From contig NZ_BMDH01000001.1 in the NCBI RefSeq assembly GCF_014635685.1, positions 186,001 to 250,000 of the forward strand: a stretch of DNA of 64,000 nucleotides, read 5' to 3'. A program made the translations under genes and the position numbers. The notes under the pieces were generated by a model, which saw nothing but the letters and a program-made list of their open reading frames with translations, was not told where the DNA came from and ran no database searches. Below are positions 33,365 to 42,067 of this stretch, piece by piece. Position 1 is the first letter of the stretch, and each line of letters starts with the position of its first letter. The DNA comes from Galliscardovia ingluviei. GTDB lineage: Bacteria; Actinomycetota; Actinomycetes; Actinomycetales; Bifidobacteriaceae.

Positions 33365-33479
33365 CTGCGAAAGCTCGCTAATACTACGGTTTTCGGGCAG
33401 TTGGGCAAATTGGGCGCCGAACAGGACAAACGCTTCTCGGCAACTTATCCAAAGAAAAATTTCGAATCAGACAACCGAG

Positions 33480-33718
33480 GAGGGAATGCCATATTTATCA
33501 GGGAATGTTATATATATAGTCTGCGCTGTTCTTTGCTGCATGAGGGAAATCCGAATGTAGATAATGTGCAATTGACTCGAAAAAATGCTTCTTTACAAAT
33601 TGATTACTTTGTTCTTAAGGTAGAGAAGAAAAAAAGATTTTGACATTTACGCTGATTCAAACGGTATTCCTGACATTTTAGGGCAGCATAGACGCGAGTA
33701 TACTATGAGTATTAGGTG
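33480..33718 (+). pseudogene. Decayed C-terminus of a Firmicutes hypothetical protein
   Basis: Three pieces in different frames read as one protein: PYLSGNVIY, then SLRCSLLHEGNPNVDN and IDYFVLKVEKKK, then DFDIYADSNGIPDILGQ up to REYTMSIRCYV and a stop. The breaks fall at a TA repeat (33509-33518) and at a run of seven A (33629-33635), so at least two indels have occurred. Leu-Arg-(C/N)-S-(L/F)-L-H-x-G-N-P is a motif I have seen in mobile-element hypothetical proteins of Firmicutes. Function unknown. The N-terminal part is absent at the methyltransferase junction. Confidence 0.55.
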
Positions 33719-33779
33719 CTATGTTTAATGATGTGTTGTGTATCAGAAAAGTTTTACAAGGATGATAAATAGAAATTTC

Positions 33780-33972
33780 AATTTATTTATGAAATTCTTG
33801 ATTGGGATAAGGCGACGGAACATTTGCCTAAGATTGATATGGCGCTCAGAGCGCGGCATATTCGGGTGGCTTGGGATTCCTTGATATATGTGATGCTGAA
33901 GATGCATCAAATGAACAGCTGTTGCAGATGGCAAGAAGAGAGGGATTCAACCTCAGCACATACAGAAAATAG
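33780..33972 (+). pseudogene. Short degenerate coding remnant
   Basis: One frame reads EILDWDKATEHLPKIDMALR and the next reads DAEDASNEQLLQMARREG followed by FNLSTYRK and a stop, consistent with a frameshifted gene tail just before the 800-residue gene. I do not recognise the protein. Base composition matches the Clostridia-like block. Confidence 0.4.
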
Positions 33973-34011
33973 CATTTATCATTTATTATGATGCAAGGAG
34001 GCTTTGTTCTT

Positions 34012-36414
34012 ATGGGAAGTAATGAATTGGTAAAAAAGGGTTCCACAGCTGTAGCAACTATAAGTGATCAGAATGCCATATTTAGCGAGGTGCCGGTTGT
34101 CAAGTATTCTTTGATAGATCACTCAAAGTATGCTTTTGAATATAAGATCGACGATGGTATCGATGTAAATATGTTTGAGTCTGACAGGACTTTTGGCAGC
34201 GATGAATTTGTAGATGCTGAATTTGACGATGCAGTAAATGAGAAAGACTATTCATATTATGTCGTTGCGGTTGCAAGTGGAATAGTTACCGGTTTGTTCA
34301 GCCAGCTTAAGCTATCTGCTGAAGCTCTTGAGAAAATTAACGACTGGAAGAACAAGGACTGGGAGAAATATATCACCATAGCTGCCAAGATGGCAGGTTA
34401 TAAGAAGACTGGTTATAAAGGCGCATCTGCTTTCATGAAGGACAGATTTGTTCCATTTGTTGAGGAGAATCTTAACATAGAAGTACAGGCAGGTATAGAG
34501 GAATGGCTAAACATATTATCAAACCATCCTTCTGTTGCGGGATTTGTATTTTCTATGTTTACACAGTTTAGTGGTAACAGATATAAGTTCGGCGATAAAG
34601 GTATTATTGCGGAAAAGGCACCGGATTACTATGCCATTGGAAGAAATACAACGGAGAAGCTTACATACGGTTTCTTATACTGGGTATTTAGTCTTGCTGT
34701 TGATGCAGCCATATCAAAGAGAGCGCTCATAGATGATTTAAATCTTCCTAAGGAAGTACTAAAGCTTCTTAAGGAGTTATATAAACTGCCTGTATTTAAG
34801 AATATTTCTAAGAACTTTGAAGAGGCAGAAAAACTATATTCATCATGGCTGATTAAGCTGTTTGAAAACAGCAGATTTACAGATGAAAACGGTCAGGAGC
34901 GGACTTTTAATTTAGAAGAAGAGATTGCAAACCTGGGGTCTGTAGGAACTGTTGTTTTTGAAAAAAGTTTTCCCATACTCATAAATGAGTGTCTGGTAAG
35001 GGGCTTTTATGTAGTAAAGAAGCTTGCTATTGAAATCAAAGAAAAAGAAATAAGATCTTTTGAGGAGCTGGATAAAGCGGATGTAGTCAATATCATTCCG
35101 TTTAATAACAGGCTGATTTCAAGGATGGTTCTGATATCAAGCGGATGTTTTGTAGGGATAAATGTTGCCGGGGCTACATTAAAAGCTGTCTTAAACAAAG
35201 ATAAGAAGAGCGGCAAGTTTGCAGGAACATTGCTTGCAGATGTAGACATTGCAGGAGTAGGAAGATTTATATTTGCCTGTGTGGCTGACAGTAAGTATTG
35301 GAGTGATGACATAAAAGTATTCTTCCAGAGAAAAGCCAAAAATAAATCAAACATAAATGAAACTGAGGCAGAGGAAAGGATAGCAGAGGATATGATGTCA
35401 AATGATTGCTTTAACGTCTTTTCTTTAACTCCGGCACAGACAAGGGCTTTATATTCTCTTGAATCGATAGCTATCACAAAAGATATCGAACATACTGATA
35501 AGGAAGATATCAAAGAAAAGAAAAAGCTGTGGCTTGAAACATGGCAGCAGAATGTCCTGGCAGGAATGGAAATTGATGGCGGGGACTATTTTGTGACAGA
35601 TGAAAAGGGCATATATGATGCTATCTACTCTTTACCTGATACAGAAGAAAACCGCAGATGGTTCTATCTTCTTACCTGTGAACTGGTTGTGTTTAAGCCA
35701 TATTATCCTCTTGGCTCAAAAAATGATGGAGCCTTTAAGGGGCTCGGAAAAGGTAAGTACGATTATATCGATGATCAGTTTGCACGCAGACAGACTATTG
35801 TAAATCAGACTGAGATTAATGCAATCAGGGAAGCATATAAAAAATACGAGGCTGTTATCAGCGGAAGTACGCAGAATAAGATCATAGCTGCTGGAATTGT
35901 AGCTATTACGGCCGTAGCTACAGGGGGTCTGGCATTTGCTTTCGCTCCCGGTATAGCAACTCTCATTGCTGGTGAAGCAGTAGTTGGACTGCATGGAGCA
36001 GCACTTACAAGTGCCAGCTTGGCTTTTGTGGGTGGTGGATCGCTTGCTGCCGGAGGGCTTGGTATGGCAGGAGGAACAGCTATTATAACAGGTGGAGGAG
36101 CGTTGCTTGGAATAGCCGGTTCCGGAAGTGCATCTATGGCAGCTATTCTATCCCAAACCAATAGTGGATACTGGCTCAGGCAGACTGTAAAACTGCTCGT
36201 ATTTAGTAAATGTGCTCTGAAAGATGCACTTAATGATGTAGATGCCATAAAGAAACTATCATCTGAAACCAGCCTTACAATTAAGAAAGTTGAAGCCAAT
36301 ATAAAAGAGCTTGAAGATGAAAAATGCTCGCTGGATAAGGATGCAATAAAGAACTCAAAAGAGTGTCTTAAATACTTGGGTAAGTGCAAGGCTGAGCTGG
36401 ATAAATTGCTTTAA
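34012..36414 (+). CDS. Large protein of unknown function with a glycine-zipper membrane segment
   Basis: 800 residues from ATG 34012, which has AAGGAGG 10 bases upstream (an earlier ATG at 33988 does not). Visible parts: an acidic N-terminus; a hydrophobic stretch at about 80-97; a long helical middle with IPFNNRLISRMVLISSG and DVDIAGVGRFIFACVADS near 365-425; a Lys/Glu-rich helix near 490-530; a very Gly/Ala-rich hydrophobic segment at about 622-710 with repeated G-x3-G spacing; and a C-terminal coiled coil (about 741-800). AT-rich codons differ from the host and suggest a Clostridia (Lachnospiraceae-like) donor. It is the only large intact gene of its block. No known domain is recognised; a membrane-active effector is only a guess. 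Confidence 0.8.
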   Translation: MGSNELVKKGSTAVATISDQNAIFSEVPVVKYSLIDHSKYAFEYKIDDGIDVNMFESDRTFGSDEFVDAEFDDAVNEKDYSYYVVAVASGIVTGLFSQLKLSAEALEKINDWKNKDWEKYITIAAKMAGYKKTGYKGASAFMKDRFVPFVEENLNIEVQAGIEEWLNILSNHPSVAGFVFSMFTQFSGNRYKFGDKGIIAEKAPDYYAIGRNTTEKLTYGFLYWVFSLAVDAAISKRALIDDLNLPKEVLKLLKELYKLPVFKNISKNFEEAEKLYSSWLIKLFENSRFTDENGQERTFNLEEEIANLGSVGTVVFEKSFPILINECLVRGFYVVKKLAIEIKEKEIRSFEELDKADVVNIIPFNNRLISRMVLISSGCFVGINVAGATLKAVLNKDKKSGKFAGTLLADVDIAGVGRFIFACVADSKYWSDDIKVFFQRKAKNKSNINETEAEERIAEDMMSNDCFNVFSLTPAQTRALYSLESIAITKDIEHTDKEDIKEKKKLWLETWQQNVLAGMEIDGGDYFVTDEKGIYDAIYSLPDTEENRRWFYLLTCELVVFKPYYPLGSKNDGAFKGLGKGKYDYIDDQFARRQTIVNQTEINAIREAYKKYEAVISGSTQNKIIAAGIVAITAVATGGLAFAFAPGIATLIAGEAVVGLHGAALTSASLAFVGGGSLAAGGLGMAGGTAIITGGGALLGIAGSGSASMAAILSQTNSGYWLRQTVKLLVFSKCALKDALNDVDAIKKLSSETSLTIKKVEANIKELEDEKCSLDKDAIKNSKECLKYLGKCKAELDKLL

Positions 36415-36447
36415 GTAAGTGCAAGGTTGCAGAGGTAGATATTCGGG

Positions 36448-36700
36448 TTATAGGCCAAAATGTGTGTCCGGTGCTGGGTCAGTCGGGGCGCCGTGGTATT
36501 CGGTTGGGGTGTGGAATTCGTCCCAGTCGATGCCGGTGCCGTATCGCATCGGGATCACGGTCGTCTGCCATGCACCCAGCGGGCTGTGTTCCTGGGCTTC
36601 CCGGTAGATCGCCTTGATCCGCCGCACCAGGGACAGGCCCCGGTGCCGCAGCGGCAAGTCGCGGATGCGTGCGTTCCTTGAACTCCAATGGAGGGTGGAA
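36448..36700 (-). pseudogene. IS256-group (IS1249-like) transposase, C-terminal fragment
   Basis: GC-rich remnant. The minus strand reads NARIRDLPLRHRGLSLVRRI, then KAIYREAQEHSPLGAW, TVIPMRYGTGIDWDEFHTP and a stop at 36448. The NARIRD..HRG..RRIKA pattern is the tail of mutator/IS1249-type transposases common in bifidobacteria. The catalytic N-terminal two thirds are missing. The fragment ends abruptly against the hydrolase remnant near 36.71 kb. No terminal inverted repeat could be identified. Confidence 0.6.
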
Positions 36701-36719
36701 TGTCGTCGGCTGCGAGTCT

Positions 36720-36974
36720 TTACTAAATCAGCCAATCCTTCAGTACAGCAATGAAATTCGCTCCGCTGTCCTGATCGTTCACGGAGAGAAGGCACACTCC
36801 TGTTATTTCAGCCGGGATGCCTACGCCAACATGGTAAAGGACAGTAAATACACGGACAACAAGGAACTGATGATCATTCCGGATGCAGTTCATACGGACC
36901 TCTATGACGGTGGCGGTAAGGATGCGATCCCCTTTGAGAAGCTGCAGAGCTTCTTTGAGGAATATCTGAAATGA
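36720..36974 (+). pseudogene. Alpha/beta hydrolase, C-terminal fragment
   Basis: In-frame tail PILQYSNEIRSAVLIVHGEK, AHSCYFSRDAYANMVK, ELMIIPDAVHTDLYDGGG and IPFEKLQSFFEEYLK is the last 80 residues of a Firmicutes alpha/beta hydrolase, including the catalytic His region (VHTDLYD). The nucleophile Ser and all upstream parts are gone, cut at the transposase remnant. Not functional. Confidence 0.75.
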
Positions 36975-37197
36975 AAATCATGGGATGAGAGAGAAATGCA
37001 GAATGGCTGGGAAAACGGATATCAACTTGTCCGGCGGCTGGTTTGCGATCCTCTACGGCGGTGAAGAACAGTCGGCGTCCTATCGCAGGTGATTGTGGCT
37101 CCATCTAACGGAGGAAGGCAATCAGTTGATCCAGATGCTTCCCCAACAGGCCACATTCCAGTTGTCTCTAGAAGAACTCTACAGGAGGTAAGCTGCA

Positions 37198-37689
37198 TTG
37201 AGAAAACCGGCTATTCTGATGGCTTCTATATTGCTCGTCCTTTCGGGATGTGCGGCGCAAAAGAGTATCTCTACGGAGCCTCAAACGATATCTTCCCAAA
37301 TAGAGAGTGTGATACCGGTAGAACCGTCCGATGAAGAAAAGCAGAAAGCAGAGGATACCATGCGATTATTGATCGGTGAAATAGAGGTTCCCGTAACTTG
37401 GGAAAACAATGCGTCTGTAGAGGAGCTGAAGGAATTAAGCCCTGTTACAATTCAGATGTCGATGTACGGCGGCTTTGAGCAGGTCGGTTCGATTGGGTAG
37501 AGCATCGTGCGGAATGATGTACAGACCGAAACAAGCTATGGAGATATCGTTCTTTACTCCGGAAATCAGATCGTGATCTTCTACGGTTCCAATTCCTGGG
37601 CCTATACCAGGCTGGGACATGTTGATCTGTCGCAGCAGGAAATGAGAGAGATGCTTGGTATCGGAGATGTTGCGATTACATTAGAATAA
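37198..37689 (+). pseudogene. Cyclophilin-like-fold lipoprotein with an in-frame amber codon
   Basis: Encodes a lipoprotein signal (ILMASILLVLSGC lipobox), a short linker and a cyclophilin-like domain (IGEIEVPVTWENNASVEELK, DIVLYSGNQIVIFYGSNSW, TRLGHVDLS). A TAG at 37498-37500 interrupts the frame exactly where relatives have Gln in the G-Q-S-x-x-R-N-D motif, so a single C-to-T change inactivated it. The frame then continues to the natural stop. TTG start with AGGAGG upstream. Firmicutes-like codon use. Confidence 0.75.
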
Positions 37690-37711
37690 TCTACGAATAA
37701 TGGCAGGAACA

Positions 37712-37754
37712 AGGCTGCGCTGTTGAAAAGATATCAACAACGCAGCCTATTTTT
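37712..37754 (+). terminator. Strong terminator after the cyclophilin-like pseudogene
   Basis: Two stacked stems, GGCTGCG / CGCAGCC and TGTTGA / TCAACA, with an AAAGATA loop and a TATTTTTC tail. Confidence 0.9.
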
Positions 37755-37988
37755 CATGACAATGGCCTTTCCTTGATTGATTTTGCAGCAAATGGGACAT
37801 TTCACGTCATATGCTCTCAAATTCCAGACACCACCTCTCAACGGGTTCACCCAAGTGCTTTGATGACATGCTTTGCCCTGATTTGAACCGGACGGCAAGG
37901 TGGTCGTCGTGAACGGTGATCCACCGGATCCCAAGTTGACGGCATACTGGGCCTAGACCTTGATCATAAACCGATTGGGCAGGGGAGG

Positions 37989-38007
37989 GCATGTTGAGAC
38001 GATGGCC
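37989..38007 (+). repeat. Att-like sequence, copy 2
   Basis: GCATGTTGAGACGATGGCC, encoding HVETMA followed by a stop 24 bases later. Compare the methyltransferase end at 33319 and copy 3 at 38161. Confidence 0.55.
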
Positions 38008-38160
38008 TCCCTCCAGCCCGCCGTATTATAGGTAAAAAAGCATGTGGACCAGTTCCCTCAAACGGAGAGCACCTGTAAAAGCGCCGTTTTTGGCTTTGAG
38101 CAGTTCCCGCGAACGGACGGAAATGTGTACGGAATCCAGACATTCAGGTGCTTGTATCAT

Positions 38161-38180
38161 GCCATGTTGAGACGGTGGCC
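38161..38180 (+). repeat. Att-like sequence, copy 3
   Basis: GCCATGTTGAGACGGTGGCC, encoding HVETVA, then VLTKE and a stop. It is one base different from copy 2 over CATGTTGAGACGnTGGCC. Together they bracket a 170-base remnant. Confidence 0.55.
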
Positions 38181-38224
38181 GTGCTGACGAAAGAATAACT
38201 TAGTCGGTCGACTGACCAAGATAA

Positions 38225-38247
38225 GCGACTAAGTTACCGACTAAGAT
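38225..38247 (+). repeat. CGACTAAG repeat pair, left side of the metal module
   Basis: GCGACTAAGT (38225-38234) is followed directly by TACCGACTAAGAT (38235-38247). An inverted copy, ACTTAGTCGGT, lies at 38207-38217. The same two units occur in swapped order at 41976-41998. Confidence 0.75.
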
Positions 38248-38255
38248 AAAGAAGA

Positions 38256-38289
38256 GTCCCTTCATGTTTAAGCGTGAAGGGACTTTTTT
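38256..38289 (+). terminator. Terminator upstream of the metal module
   Basis: Perfect stem GTCCCTTCA / TGAAGGGAC with a 10-base loop and a TTTTTT tail. Its own gene is missing, so it is probably a left-over from the donor locus. Confidence 0.9.
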
Positions 38290-38427
38290 GTCCCATTATT
38301 TGCGCTTTCGTGCAAAATCGGGAAGAATCTGACCAAGTATTGCGCCGACTGAAACTAAGCCATTCAGAGGATCAAATTCCCCTGGGTGGCTATTTTCGTA
38401 AAAAAAATTTTTGCAAAAATCCCGATC

Positions 38428-38469
38428 TTGATAGAAATCATTTGGGGAAACATGTTTTCCCGGTATATT
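38428..38469 (+). promoter_or_regulatory. FNR-type box and promoter of the metal ATPase
   Basis: TTGATAGAAATCAT (38428-38441) matches TTGAT-N4-ATCAA at nine of ten positions. The -10 TATATT is at 38464-38469, placing the box centre near -41.5, the class II activation position. A near-palindrome GGGGAAACATGTTTTCCC (38444-38461) lies between. Confidence 0.75.
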
Positions 38470-38501
38470 AAAAGCCTCAAAGCAAGGAGGTCAAAAGATC
38501 A

Positions 38502-40358
38502 ATGCAAAAATGGTTAATGAAAAATCGCAACCGGCTGACGGCCGCTACGGGCATCTTAATCATCCTGGCCTTTGCCGCAAAATGGTTATTTAAAAGTGAA
38601 ACAGCAGAGTCTGGCCTGCTCCTGGCCGCCTCCCTCATCGGCGGCTTCCCGATCGCCGCATCCGCTTGGCAGGCCCTGAAAGTCAAAGTCATCAGTATCG
38701 ACTTGCTGGTGACCCTGGCCATCTTAGGTGCCTTCATCATCCAGGAATTCGAAGAATCCGCCATCGTGGCCTTCCTCTTCTTGTTTGGGGCTTACCTTGA
38801 ACAAAAAACTCTGGCCAAGACCCGGTCAGCCATCAAGGAACTGGTGGAGATGGTGCCAGAAACCGCCCTTCGGCAAACTGAAGACGGCGACTTTGAAGAA
38901 GTTGACTTAGACGACCTGGACGAAGGGGACATCCTTTTGGTCAAGACCGGCGGCAAGATCCCGGTTGACGGGGAAGTCGTCTCCGGTTCCGGGACGGCCA
39001 ACGAAGCCAGCATTACCGGTGAGTCCATGCCTTTAGGCAAAAAGCCCGGTGACCCGGTCTATGCCGGTACTATTTTGGAAAACGGGACCATCCGGATCAA
39101 GGCGGAAAAAGTCGGGGATGAAACGACTTTTGGCAAGATCATCGAACTGGTCGAAGAAGCCCAGGACTCCAAGTCCCAGGCTGAGCGTCTCATTGACCGC
39201 TTCTCCAAGTACTACACCCCAGTCGTCCTGCTCCTGGCCATTATTGTTGGCATTATCAGCCAAGACCTGGAACTGGCTGTAACCATCCTGGTTCTCGGCT
39301 GCCCAGGCGCCTTGGTTATCGGGGTTCCGGTCTCCAACGTGGCCGGGATCGGGAACGGGGCCAAGCAGGGGATCCTTTTTAAAGGCAGTGAAGTCATAAC
39401 CAAGTTCAGCAAGGTCGACACGATCATGTTCGACAAGACCGGGACCTTGACTTACGGCGACCCCCGGGTCAGCCAGGTGAAAAAGTACGGCCAGGGACAG
39501 CTGGCTGAACAGCTTTTGGTCAGCGTGGAAAAAGAATCTGCCCACCCTTTGGCGAAAGCTATCACTGGCTACTATGAAGACCTAGAAGCTAAAGAAGTTG
39601 AAGCTTCCCAGGTCCTCCAGGGCGGCGGGATCGTTGCTCAAGTAGCTGGCCAGCAGGTCCTGGTCGGCAACCGCTACCTGCTTGACCAGTACCATGTCCC
39701 AGTCACAAAAGAAATGAAAAGGGACATGGAAGAGCTGGCAAGTGCTGGTAATTCCCTGGTTCTGGTGGCTGTTAACAGACAGCTGGAACTTGCTTTAGGC
39801 TTAAAGGATGAGATCCGGGCCGGGGTCAAGGAAGACCTGGCTGCTTTAAAGAAGCTGGGCGTTAAGAACCTGCTCCTCTTGTCCGGGGACAACCAGAAGA
39901 CGGTTGACCTAGTAGCGGAAGAACTGGGCCTCACTGAGGCATATGGTCAGCTTTTGCCAGAAGACAAGGCCGAATTTGTCAAAAAGCGGCAGGCAGCCGG
40001 TGAAATCGTGGCCTTTGTCGGCGACGGGATCAACGACAGTCCGTCACTGGCCCGTGCAGATATCGGGATTGCCATGGGCAGCGGGACTGACGTGGCAATT
40101 GAGACTTCAAACGTGGTCCTCATGAACGGCAGCTTTGACCGGATTCCGCGGTCCCTGGCCCTAGCTAAGGCCACCCGGCGGAACATGATTGAGAACATCA
40201 CCATCGCCCTGGCTGTCGTAGCCGTCCTGCTGGTCAGCGTGTTAGCCAGCTCATGGATGAACATGGCCATCGGGATGTTTGTCCACGAAGGCAGTATCCT
40301 CGTTGTAATCTTAAACGCCATGCGCCTTCTGGCCTACCGGTCAAAATTACAAAAATAG
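38502..40358 (+). CDS. Heavy-metal P1B-type ATPase with a CPG transmembrane motif
   Basis: Metal efflux pump, 618 residues. About eight membrane helices. The transmembrane metal site reads LGCPGALVIGVPVS: Cys-Pro-Gly where copper pumps have CPC or CPH. Actuator TGES, phosphorylation DKTGTLT, HP motif SAHPLA, hinge GDGINDSPSLARADIG and the C-terminal HEGS membrane segment are all intact. There is no N-terminal metal-binding domain; that role falls to the separate HMA gene downstream. GC-rich codons (GGCC-type) and Lactobacillus-like sequence contrast with the host. AGGAGG precedes the ATG. An FNR-type box lies upstream. The metal (Zn, Cd, Co, Fe or Cu) cannot be assigned. Confidence 0.92.
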   Translation: MQKWLMKNRNRLTAATGILIILAFAAKWLFKSETAESGLLLAASLIGGFPIAASAWQALKVKVISIDLLVTLAILGAFIIQEFEESAIVAFLFLFGAYLEQKTLAKTRSAIKELVEMVPETALRQTEDGDFEEVDLDDLDEGDILLVKTGGKIPVDGEVVSGSGTANEASITGESMPLGKKPGDPVYAGTILENGTIRIKAEKVGDETTFGKIIELVEEAQDSKSQAERLIDRFSKYYTPVVLLLAIIVGIISQDLELAVTILVLGCPGALVIGVPVSNVAGIGNGAKQGILFKGSEVITKFSKVDTIMFDKTGTLTYGDPRVSQVKKYGQGQLAEQLLVSVEKESAHPLAKAITGYYEDLEAKEVEASQVLQGGGIVAQVAGQQVLVGNRYLLDQYHVPVTKEMKRDMEELASAGNSLVLVAVNRQLELALGLKDEIRAGVKEDLAALKKLGVKNLLLLSGDNQKTVDLVAEELGLTEAYGQLLPEDKAEFVKKRQAAGEIVAFVGDGINDSPSLARADIGIAMGSGTDVAIETSNVVLMNGSFDRIPRSLALAKATRRNMIENITIALAVVAVLLVSVLASSWMNMAIGMFVHEGSILVVILNAMRLLAYRSKLQK

Positions 40359-40364
40359 CGAAAC

Positions 40365-40406
40365 TTGATAGAAAACAATGTTTCGCAAGCAGCAGGCCCG
40401 TATACT
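40365..40406 (+). promoter_or_regulatory. Second FNR-type box and promoter, for the HMA-Ric-regulator genes
   Basis: TTGATAGAAAACAA (40365-40378) matches TTGAT-N4-ATCAA at nine of ten positions. The -10 TATACT is at 40401-40406. The distance from box to -10 (36 bases, start to start) is identical to that at the ATPase promoter. The box lies in the loop of an inverted repeat, GCGAAAC / GTTTCGC (40358-40364, 40380-40386), which may also end the ATPase transcript. Confidence 0.75.
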
Positions 40407-40447
40407 AAGGGCATCGAAAGCATCCAATAGAAAAAGGACAAGAAATC

Positions 40448-40675
40448 ATGCAAAAAGCAATTTTACAACTTGAAACATTGGCCTGCCCGACCTGCATGCA
40501 GAAGATCGCAGGGGCGATCGCCGATGTCGACGGGGTTGAAAAGACCAGCGTCAAGGTCCTCTTCAACGCAAGCAAGGCCAAGGCCAACTTCGACCCGGAA
40601 AAAACCAATGTGGACACGATCACTCAAGCCGTGAAGAATATCGGCTATGACGTCTTGAAGGCCAGCGCTAAATAA
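40448..40675 (+). CDS. Heavy-metal-associated (HMA) metallochaperone
   Basis: 75-residue ferredoxin-like HMA protein with the soft-metal site ACPTCMQKI (Cys-x2-Cys) at about residues 12-20 and the conserved ISxA-like strand replaced by VEKTSVKVLFNASKA. Probably hands a metal to, or senses it with, the P-type ATPase encoded just upstream, which lacks such a domain. It has its own FNR-box promoter and is followed by the Ric gene after 46 bases. Confidence 0.9.
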   Translation: MQKAILQLETLACPTCMQKIAGAIADVDGVEKTSVKVLFNASKAKANFDPEKTNVDTITQAVKNIGYDVLKASAK

Positions 40676-40721
40676 GAGAAAAGCAAAAAAGAAAAACGAC
40701 TAATCAAGAAAAAGGAGAAAA

Positions 40722-41003
40722 ATGATGATCAAGGAATTTTTTACCAAGAACGATGAAATGTTAGACTTATATACGAAGGCAATTACCAAGGCCCACGGCT
40801 CCCACCACCCGGAAGTTTTTGAAGTCCGCAAGGTTTATGAAGACATCCAAAAGAAGGTGAAAGCAGGCCAGGAAGACTTGACTGCCGACTTCAGCAAGCT
40901 GCGGTCCTTGACCGCGGATTACGCCATTCCGGCCGACGCCTGCGGTGCGATGACTAAGACCTATCAGACCCTGGAAGAATTCGACCACTTGGTCTTGGGC
41001 TAA
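40722..41003 (+). CDS. Ric-family hemerythrin-like di-iron protein
   Basis: 93 residues. Resembles the small lactobacillar Ric proteins annotated for iron-sulfur cluster repair: HGSHHPEVFEVRKVYEDI (His and Glu ligands at about 26-43) and YAIPADACGAMTKTYQTLEEFDH (Cys, Glu, Asp, His at about 67-89). It is shorter than the E. coli YtfE protein. Its place between a metallochaperone and a Crp/Fnr regulator suggests a role in nitrosative, oxidative or metal damage of Fe-S proteins. AAGGAG precedes tandem ATG codons. Confidence 0.75.
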   Translation: MMIKEFFTKNDEMLDLYTKAITKAHGSHHPEVFEVRKVYEDIQKKVKAGQEDLTADFSKLRSLTADYAIPADACGAMTKTYQTLEEFDHLVLG

Positions 41004-41027
41004 TTTTTACCAGCAGAGGAGAGCAAA

Positions 41028-41678
41028 GTGCAGCATACGTGTGTCAGCCTGGTTCCCTTATTCATGGACCTGCCAGAAAAAGACCAGCTTAAGATCAATT
41101 CCCTGGCCATCCACCGGCGGTATCAAAAAGGTGAGACGATTTTTCAGCCAGGGGATGAAAAGCTGCAAATCGTGGCCCGGGGAAACATGAAGGTTTACCA
41201 GCTGACCTCCAGCGGCCGTGAGCAGCTGCTCCGGGTTGCCCAGCCGGGTGACTATGAAGGGGAAAAGCAGCTTTTTGGCCTGGAAAACGACAGCTTCTTC
41301 GGCCAGGCCATGGAGAATACGGAAATCTGCAGCTTGAGCAAGGCCGACTTCAACCGGGTCCTCCTAGAAAATCCCCAGCTCTCCCTCAAACTGCTGGAAC
41401 TAAGCACCCAGAAGCTGCTGGCCACGGAAAGGCAGACCCAGTTCCTGGCCATGGAGCGGGTCGAAGAAAGGCTGGCCAGCTACCTGCTCGACTTGGCTAA
41501 AGTGGCTGGAAGCGACCAGGTCCAGCTGTCCATGAAGATGAAAGATATCGCCTTCTACTTGGGAACTACTCCCGAAACCCTCTCCCGCAAATTCAAACTC
41601 CTCGAAAAAATGGGCTATCTGAAAAGGACAGGCAAACAGGTGAAAATCCTTGATGAAGATGGTCTGCTGGACTTGTAA
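41028..41678 (+). CDS. Crp/Fnr-family transcriptional regulator (FLP-like)
   Basis: 216 residues: a cyclic-nucleotide-binding-like beta-barrel (about 8-120), a dimer helix (about 120-150) and a winged helix-turn-helix (about 165-200). The recognition helix TPETLSRKF contains E-x2-S-R, the residues with which FNR reads TTGAT half-sites. That agrees with the two TTGAT-N4-type boxes in this module. Only one cysteine (residue 5) is present, so it is not a 4Fe-4S FNR; a thiol or metal signal is possible. GTG start with AGAGGAG upstream. It is the last gene of the module, followed by a terminator. Confidence 0.9.
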   Translation: MQHTCVSLVPLFMDLPEKDQLKINSLAIHRRYQKGETIFQPGDEKLQIVARGNMKVYQLTSSGREQLLRVAQPGDYEGEKQLFGLENDSFFGQAMENTEICSLSKADFNRVLLENPQLSLKLLELSTQKLLATERQTQFLAMERVEERLASYLLDLAKVAGSDQVQLSMKMKDIAFYLGTTPETLSRKFKLLEKMGYLKRTGKQVKILDEDGLLDL

Positions 41679-41687
41679 TAGACAAGA

Positions 41688-41724
41688 AAAATCTCCCTCT
41701 AGATTACTAGGAGGAGATTTTTTT
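41688..41724 (+). terminator. Terminator of the metal module
   Basis: AAATCTCC / GGAGATTT stem followed by TTTTTT just after the regulator stop. Confidence 0.88.
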
Positions 41725-41752
41725 ACTATCGAAAAAGAAAGATGAAGACGGC

Positions 41753-41875
41753 TTAGTGCAAGGCGGTTACAAAAGTGATCAGGCCGAAGATAATGCCAGG
41801 GACATTGGCAATAAAGACCGGCCAGTCCTTGTACTTCTGCAAAAGGGCGTAGCTGCACCAAAAGGAGCTGTTGAA
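41753..41875 (-). pseudogene. SemiSWEET sugar transporter, C-terminal fragment
   Basis: The minus strand reads NSSFWCSYALLQKYKDW then PVFIANVPGIIFGLITFVTA and LH before a stop: the last helix and PQ-loop-like segment of a Lactobacillus-type SemiSWEET. Full proteins have about 85-100 residues; the first half is lost near 41.88 kb. It marks the right flank of the Lactobacillus-derived DNA. Confidence 0.6.
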
Positions 41876-41975
41876 GGATATATCGTGATGACGTTTTCGG
41901 ACAAATCCAATAGTCGGTATCAGCGTTATAGAGTATTACAGGAAGCTTTTCCGATTTTATCCGGTGTTACATACC

Positions 41976-41998
41976 TACCGACTAAGATGCGACTAAGT
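41976..41998 (+). repeat. CGACTAAG repeat pair, right side of the metal module
   Basis: TACCGACTAAGAT (41976-41988) followed by GCGACTAAGT (41989-41998): the same two units as at 38225-38247 in swapped order, about 3.7 kb apart. Host-like sequence resumes within about 70 bases. Confidence 0.75.
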
Positions 41999-42067
41999 AA
42001 GGGTAATAGGTCAAAACTGAAGTATATGCAACTGCTGTATGTACAATATGGAGTTTGAGGATAGAGC

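What the first reader, a model, noticed from the sequence alone, without database searches (positions are those of the whole stretch)
38428..40406. Two FNR-type boxes with identical spacing mark a self-contained regulon in the metal module
TTGATAGAAATCAT (38428) and TTGATAGAAAACAA (40365) each begin exactly 36 bases before their -10 elements (TATATT at 38464, TATACT at 40401), the class II activator position. The module's own Crp/Fnr protein has the E-x2-S-R recognition helix that reads TTGAT. The regulator therefore probably activates the ATPase and its own HMA-Ric-regulator transcript.
Basis: partly seen in the sequence, partly recalled or inferred. Interest (0 to 1): 0.66.

Follow-up and report, generated by a model that had tools for sequence, protein, structure and literature searches.

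The report
Mobile Flp-controlled metal-transport cassette
Two matching control sites, each at exactly the same distance before a promoter, appear to switch on a small metal-transport gene cassette that carries its own regulator and has recently moved between lactobacilli and bifidobacteria; the regulator type is known, but the fixed layout across two phyla is newly shown here.

Summary
TTGATAGAAATCAT (38428) and TTGATAGAAAACAA (40365) each start 36 bases before their -10 hexamer, so each box is centred at -41.5, the class II activator position. This is not chance. In the 2.09 Mb host genome these are the only near-perfect box/-10 pairs outside coding sequence. Across 73 non-redundant promoters of homologous modules (Lactobacillaceae, Enterococcus, Lactococcus plasmids, Bifidobacteriaceae) a TAnnnT hexamer lies at exactly +36 in 90%; any other offset reaches 16% at most. 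The promoters have no -35 above shuffled level and no extended -10, as expected for activator dependence. All 70 linked regulators keep Cys5 and Cys101 and, with one exception, the E-x2-S-R helix; the E. coli FNR four-cysteine cluster is absent. This fits the L. casei FLP type (recalled). The module (CPG-type P1B ATPase; HMA chaperone, Ric-like protein, Flp) is a recent import: 94-95% nucleotide identity with L. delbrueckii and a Faecalicatena-labelled record, inside an 8.7 kb island after rlmCD that congeners lack. Best reading: a travelling FLP/FlpA-type metal regulon activated by its own Flp. Binding, transcription starts, the signal and the metal are untested. New member of a known kind.

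The parts
38163..38198 (+). extra rlmCD (rumA) C-terminal fragment (HVETVAVLTKE*) followed by a sequence ~90% identical to the region just after rlmCD in L. delbrueckii
38428..38441 (+). Flp/FNR-type box upstream of the ATPase gene (TTGATAGAAATCAT; near-identical relatives have the perfect ATCAA half-site)
38464..38469 (+). -10 element TATATT, 36 bases from box start; predicted +1 near 38476
38502..40358 (+). P1B-type heavy-metal ATPase, 618 aa, with GCPGALVIGVPV in place of the usual CPC
40365..40378 (+). Flp/FNR-type box upstream of the HMA gene (TTGATAGAAAACAA)
40401..40406 (+). -10 element TATACT, 36 bases from box start; predicted +1 near 40413
40448..40675 (+). HMA-domain metallochaperone, 75 aa, CPTC
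40722..41003 (+). Ric-like 93-aa protein (matches only the C-terminal part of the di-iron Ric family); most relatives carry a ferritin-like protein here
41028..41678 (+). Crp/Fnr-family regulator of Flp type (GTG start), Cys5 and Cys101, helix TTPETLSRK
41687..41722 (+). inverted repeat with T-run after the regulator, likely terminator
   Evidence: I10

Best explanation
This is a horizontally acquired, self-regulated metal-homeostasis cassette of the FLP/FlpA type. The last gene makes an Flp dimer that, in its DNA-binding state, sits on TTGAY-N4-RTCAA at -41.5 of two class II promoters lacking a usable -35. It contacts RNA polymerase there and switches on (a) the P1B ATPase and (b) its own HMA-Ric-Flp transcript, a positive feedback loop. 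Activity is probably set by a thiol switch between Cys5 and Cys101 (disulphide, or a metal bridging the pair). Shown: boxes, spacing, promoter weakness, helix and cysteine conservation, import into an 8.7 kb island. Inferred: binding, activation, the signal, the metal and function in this host.
For: TAnnnT at exactly +36 in 66/73 non-redundant promoters. An unbiased scan of 101 Lactobacillaceae recovers same-strand box/-10 pairs about 1.9-2.0 kb apart in at least 18 genomes, my hand count from the listing; window pair 1937. Host genome has no other credible site. -35 no better than shuffled (2.36 vs 2.50 matches), TG of an extended -10 in 0/66. Cys5 and Cys101 in 70/70 regulators; E183, R187 in 70/70. 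ATPase-HMA-third gene-Flp order kept in most modules at 45-60% protein identity. FNR box, contacts and -41.5 position: PMC4505428, PMC7349173. PMC3616900 (RegPrecise) places FlpA under metal homeostasis.
Against: No start site, binding or expression data. The ATPase box in the window has lost one conserved base (ATCAT) that nearest relatives keep. The HMA box starts 7 bases after the ATPase stop, so read-through could make its promoter partly redundant. Seven of the 73 promoters lack TAnnnT at +36, and some modules have no HMA box or none with a +36 hexamer (L061, L063, L065, L067, L068, L105). The metal is unassigned.
Confidence: 0.83

Rival explanations
1. The regulator represses: bound at -41.5 it blocks RNA polymerase, and metal or redox change releases it.
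For: The box overlaps the -35 region, where a bound protein can also occlude polymerase (geometry); many metal-efflux genes are controlled by derepression (general knowledge).
Against: Without the protein the promoters would be very weak: -35 at shuffled level, no extended -10. A spacing fixed to the base in two phyla fits activator-polymerase contact better than occlusion.
Confidence: 0.1
2. The cassette is inert or miswired in this host: the geometry is inherited from lactobacilli but not used by bifidobacterial RNA polymerase.
For: Recent import (93-97% nucleotide identity with copies in other genera and phyla); one degraded box position in the window copy.
Against: More divergent bifidobacterial modules (about 36-56% identical regulators) keep the same box and +36 spacing although most other promoter bases changed, so selection has held it in this family. 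All four frames in the window are open.
Confidence: 0.1
3. The regulator is an oxygen sensor with an FNR-type [4Fe-4S] cluster.
For: FNR-type recognition helix and box; best solved-structure sequence matches are FNR regulators.
Against: Only two cysteines in nearly all 70 orthologues; FNR uses four essential cysteines (PMC4505428). Caveat: a cluster with non-cysteine ligands has been described for L. lactis FlpA (cited in PMC5039431).
Confidence: 0.08
4. The matching spacing is coincidence.
For: Lone boxes with up to 2 mismatches are common by chance.
Against: 66/73 promoters share it against 1.5% background.
Confidence: 0.005

Closest known systems
L. casei FLP (Gostick et al. 1998, cited in PMC5039431 and PMC4505428)
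   Same: Crp/Fnr family without the four-Cys cluster; two-cysteine pair near residues 5 and 102 (position from memory; here 5 and 101); FNR-type helix
   Different: The published L. casei sequence was not on hand for direct alignment; its reported target consensus (memory) may differ at the outer bases
L. lactis FlpA/FlpB operons and the RegPrecise FlpA metal-homeostasis regulon (PMC3616900; Scott et al. 2000 on zinc, cited in PMC6196286)
   Same: Module on L. lactis plasmid pGdh442: ATPase, HMA protein, third helical protein, Crp/Fnr regulator, both boxes with -10 at +36
   Different: Third gene is ferritin-like (181 aa) there, Ric-like (93 aa) here; proteins about 45-53% identical; host phylum differs
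E. coli FNR class II promoters
   Same: Box TTGATNNNNATCAA at -41.5; E-x2-S-R contacts (PMC4505428, PMC7349173)
   Different: No [4Fe-4S] cysteines; local regulator of two promoters, not a global anaerobic regulator
ZntA/CadA/CopA P1B ATPases
   Same: Above NCBIfam cut-offs for heavy-metal P-type ATPase
   Different: Membrane motif is CPG in nearly all modules, so the metal cannot be read off from CPC-type rules; ZntA and CopA equivalog cut-offs not reached

Membership tests
FLP/FlpA regulon (Lactobacillales) | Crp/Fnr regulator encoded last, behind HMA and a small helical protein, next to a P-type ATPase | tested here: met
   Gene order in window and relatives incl. Lactococcus plasmids
FLP/FlpA regulon (Lactobacillales) | Two conserved cysteines (N-terminal and about residue 101) for a thiol switch | tested here: met
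   Cys5 and Cys101 in 70/70; that they form a disulphide here was not tested
FLP/FlpA regulon (Lactobacillales) | FNR-like box at both promoters in activator position | tested here: met
FLP/FlpA regulon (Lactobacillales) | Redox-dependent specific DNA binding and transcription activation | not testable with these tools
   needs purified protein and start-site mapping
E. coli FNR (oxygen sensor) | Four cysteines binding an O2-labile [4Fe-4S] cluster | tested here: not met
   two cysteines only; definition from PMC4505428
E. coli FNR (oxygen sensor) | E-x2-S-R recognition helix and TTGAT-N4-ATCAA target | tested here: met
Class II activator promoter | Site centred at -41.5 with poor -35 | tested here: met
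   the start site itself is not mapped
Canonical CPC-type ZntA/CopA exporter | CPC metal-binding motif in the membrane helix | tested here: not met
   GCPGALVIG(V/A)PV in nearly all modules

The most novel reading that the evidence does not exclude
A regulator-plus-promoter cassette has crossed between phyla more than once (Bacillota and Actinomycetota) and works on arrival because it brings both its activator and promoters whose only strong elements are the activator box and a -10 fixed at +36, making it largely independent of host promoter preferences; it serves a P1B ATPase class (CPG) of still unknown metal.
Probability: 0.4. Interest if true: 0.55.

Novelty: new member of a known kind. 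Interest (0 to 1): 0.42.

Why it matters
It gives an exact, testable promoter rule (TTGAY-N4-RTCAA, then -10 at +36) for finding Flp metal regulons in lactic acid bacteria and bifidobacteria. It shows one such regulon moving between gut phyla with its control sites intact, and it flags a widespread CPG-type metal ATPase family whose substrate is open.

Tried and rejected
Chance spacing. FNR-type Fe-S sensing by the four-cysteine rule. Extra regulon members in the host: the additional pattern hits lie inside reading frames or lack the second half-site. Sigma-70 consensus scan: does not pick up either promoter, 4 sites against 3.3 expected, consistent with missing -35s. No structure prediction was run, because coordinates, and so a Cys5-Cys101 distance, would not be returned.

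Full report
Observation. Both boxes and both -10 elements are at the stated coordinates, and the box-start to -10-start distance is 36 in each. A 14-bp site at that distance is centred 41.5 bp before a start site placed seven bases after the -10, the standard class II FNR position (PMC7349173). A box alone is common in a 64 kb window: 62 at up to 2 mismatches, 43 expected. The combination with a -10 at +36 is not: the whole 2.09 Mb genome has three hits to TTGATNNNNANCA-N23-TANNNT, two of them these. A looser pattern adds only two sites that lie inside reading frames.

What surrounds it. The two boxes head a P1B-type ATPase gene (38502-40358) and an HMA chaperone, Ric-like protein, Crp/Fnr regulator run (40448-41678) ending in a terminator-like repeat. 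The nearest copies, about 92-98% identical in regulator protein, are in Aeriscardovia aeriphila, Bifidobacterium pseudolongum and choerinum, Lactobacillus delbrueckii, L. pasteurii, L. nasalidis and a Faecalicatena-labelled record. More distant modules (about 36-60% identical regulator) occur in other Bifidobacteriaceae, Enterococcus dispar, Lactococcus plasmids and many Lactobacillaceae. The family of the window's genome is Bifidobacteriaceae, since the same-family genomes include the Aeriscardovia and B. pseudolongum ones.

Conservation of the layout. I extracted the upstream regions of ATPase and HMA genes from 70 loci, chose the best box without reference to the -10, and kept one per 75%-identity cluster: 73 promoters (37 ATPase, 36 HMA). 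TAnnnT lies at exactly +36 in 90%; the next best offset is +41 with 16%, and offsets 21-35 never exceed 3%. Background TAnnnT frequency is 1.5%. The box consensus is TTGAY-N4-RTCAA, usually followed by KT. At perfect promoter boxes 69 of 80 have the hexamer; at one-mismatch boxes elsewhere 8 of 316 do. Some promoters share ancestry, so the binomial figure overstates the significance, but the contrast between offsets does not depend on it. A scan of 101 Lactobacillaceae genomes that ignored the module still returned same-strand box/-10 pairs about 1.9-2.0 kb apart, one ATPase gene length, in at least 18 genomes by my count of the listing. In the window the two boxes are 1937 bases apart.

Activator dependence. 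In the 66 promoters with a +36 hexamer the best -35 match averages 2.36 of 6 against 2.50 in shuffles, and none has the TG of an extended -10. Promoters of this kind normally need an activator (established knowledge).

The regulator. All 70 orthologues have Cys5 and Cys101, in most the only cysteines, and the helix TTPETxSR: E183 and R187 invariant, S186 in 69. In FNR the matching Glu209, Ser212 and Arg213 make the main box contacts (PMC4505428). FNR's four-cysteine cluster is absent. The cysteine pair matches what I recall of the L. casei FLP disulphide switch (Gostick et al. 1998; the paper itself was not readable here). The host's other Crp/Fnr protein has another helix.

How it got there. 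In three congeners rlmCD is followed closely by the lipoprotein, P-type ATPase and aconitase genes; in the window an 8.7 kb insertion separates rlmCD (ends 33364) from the lipoprotein gene (42068). Inside it, at 38163, is a second rlmCD C-terminus, followed by sequence about 90% identical to the region just after rlmCD in L. delbrueckii. B. pseudolongum and Aeriscardovia carry the module at the same chromosomal place, although the flanking host genes are only about 65-72% identical in DNA while the module is 95-97%. rumA/rlmCD is a known target of serine-integrase ICEs in streptococci (PMC4701971). I found no integrase in the ORF lists I read and did not search for one systematically, so the vehicle is inferred.

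Mechanism and limits. Most likely Flp activates both promoters, the second being its own. The signal (redox through Cys5-Cys101, or a metal bound there) and the metal are open: the ATPase has CPG instead of CPC in nearly all modules. The third gene is ferritin-like in most relatives and Ric-like here, which points toward iron or oxidative stress without proving it. L. lactis work on FlpA/FlpB points to zinc (Scott et al. 2000, cited in PMC6196286). PMC3616900 lists FlpA under metal homeostasis.

Novelty. The regulator type and its link with metal homeostasis are known in lactic acid bacteria. The exact 36-base rule over two phyla, the presence in bifidobacteria and the recent transfer did not turn up in the papers I could search, a library that omits most subscription journals.

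Noticed in passing
window 33365-42067: 8.7 kb island between rlmCD and a lipoprotein gene; three congeners have these genes close together. It also holds an 808-aa protein (33988-36414) with no Pfam or NCBIfam match.
   Followed up: partly
L014 1870-3478: In the Faecalicatena-labelled record a transposon with a TnpB-like gene (426 aa) splits the ATPase promoter from its gene near codons 4-7, moving the box about 1.6 kb away. Its upstream rlmCD end resembles that of L. delbrueckii, so the record may be mislabelled.
   Followed up: partly
window 40722-41003 versus L141 4767-5309: The third gene of the module is swapped: Ric-like (93 aa, lacking most of the Ric family profile) in this clade and a few others, ferritin-like (about 180 aa) in most.
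   Followed up: partly
window 38502-40358: ATPase membrane motif is GCPGALVIG(V/A)PV in nearly all Flp-linked modules, unlike CPC-type ZntA or CopA; metal unknown.
   Followed up: partly
L133 5848-7439 and L139 5687-7268: In these two Lactobacillaceae loci the HMA and third genes lie on the opposite strand to the ATPase and regulator, yet the HMA gene keeps its own box and -10 at +36.
   Followed up: no
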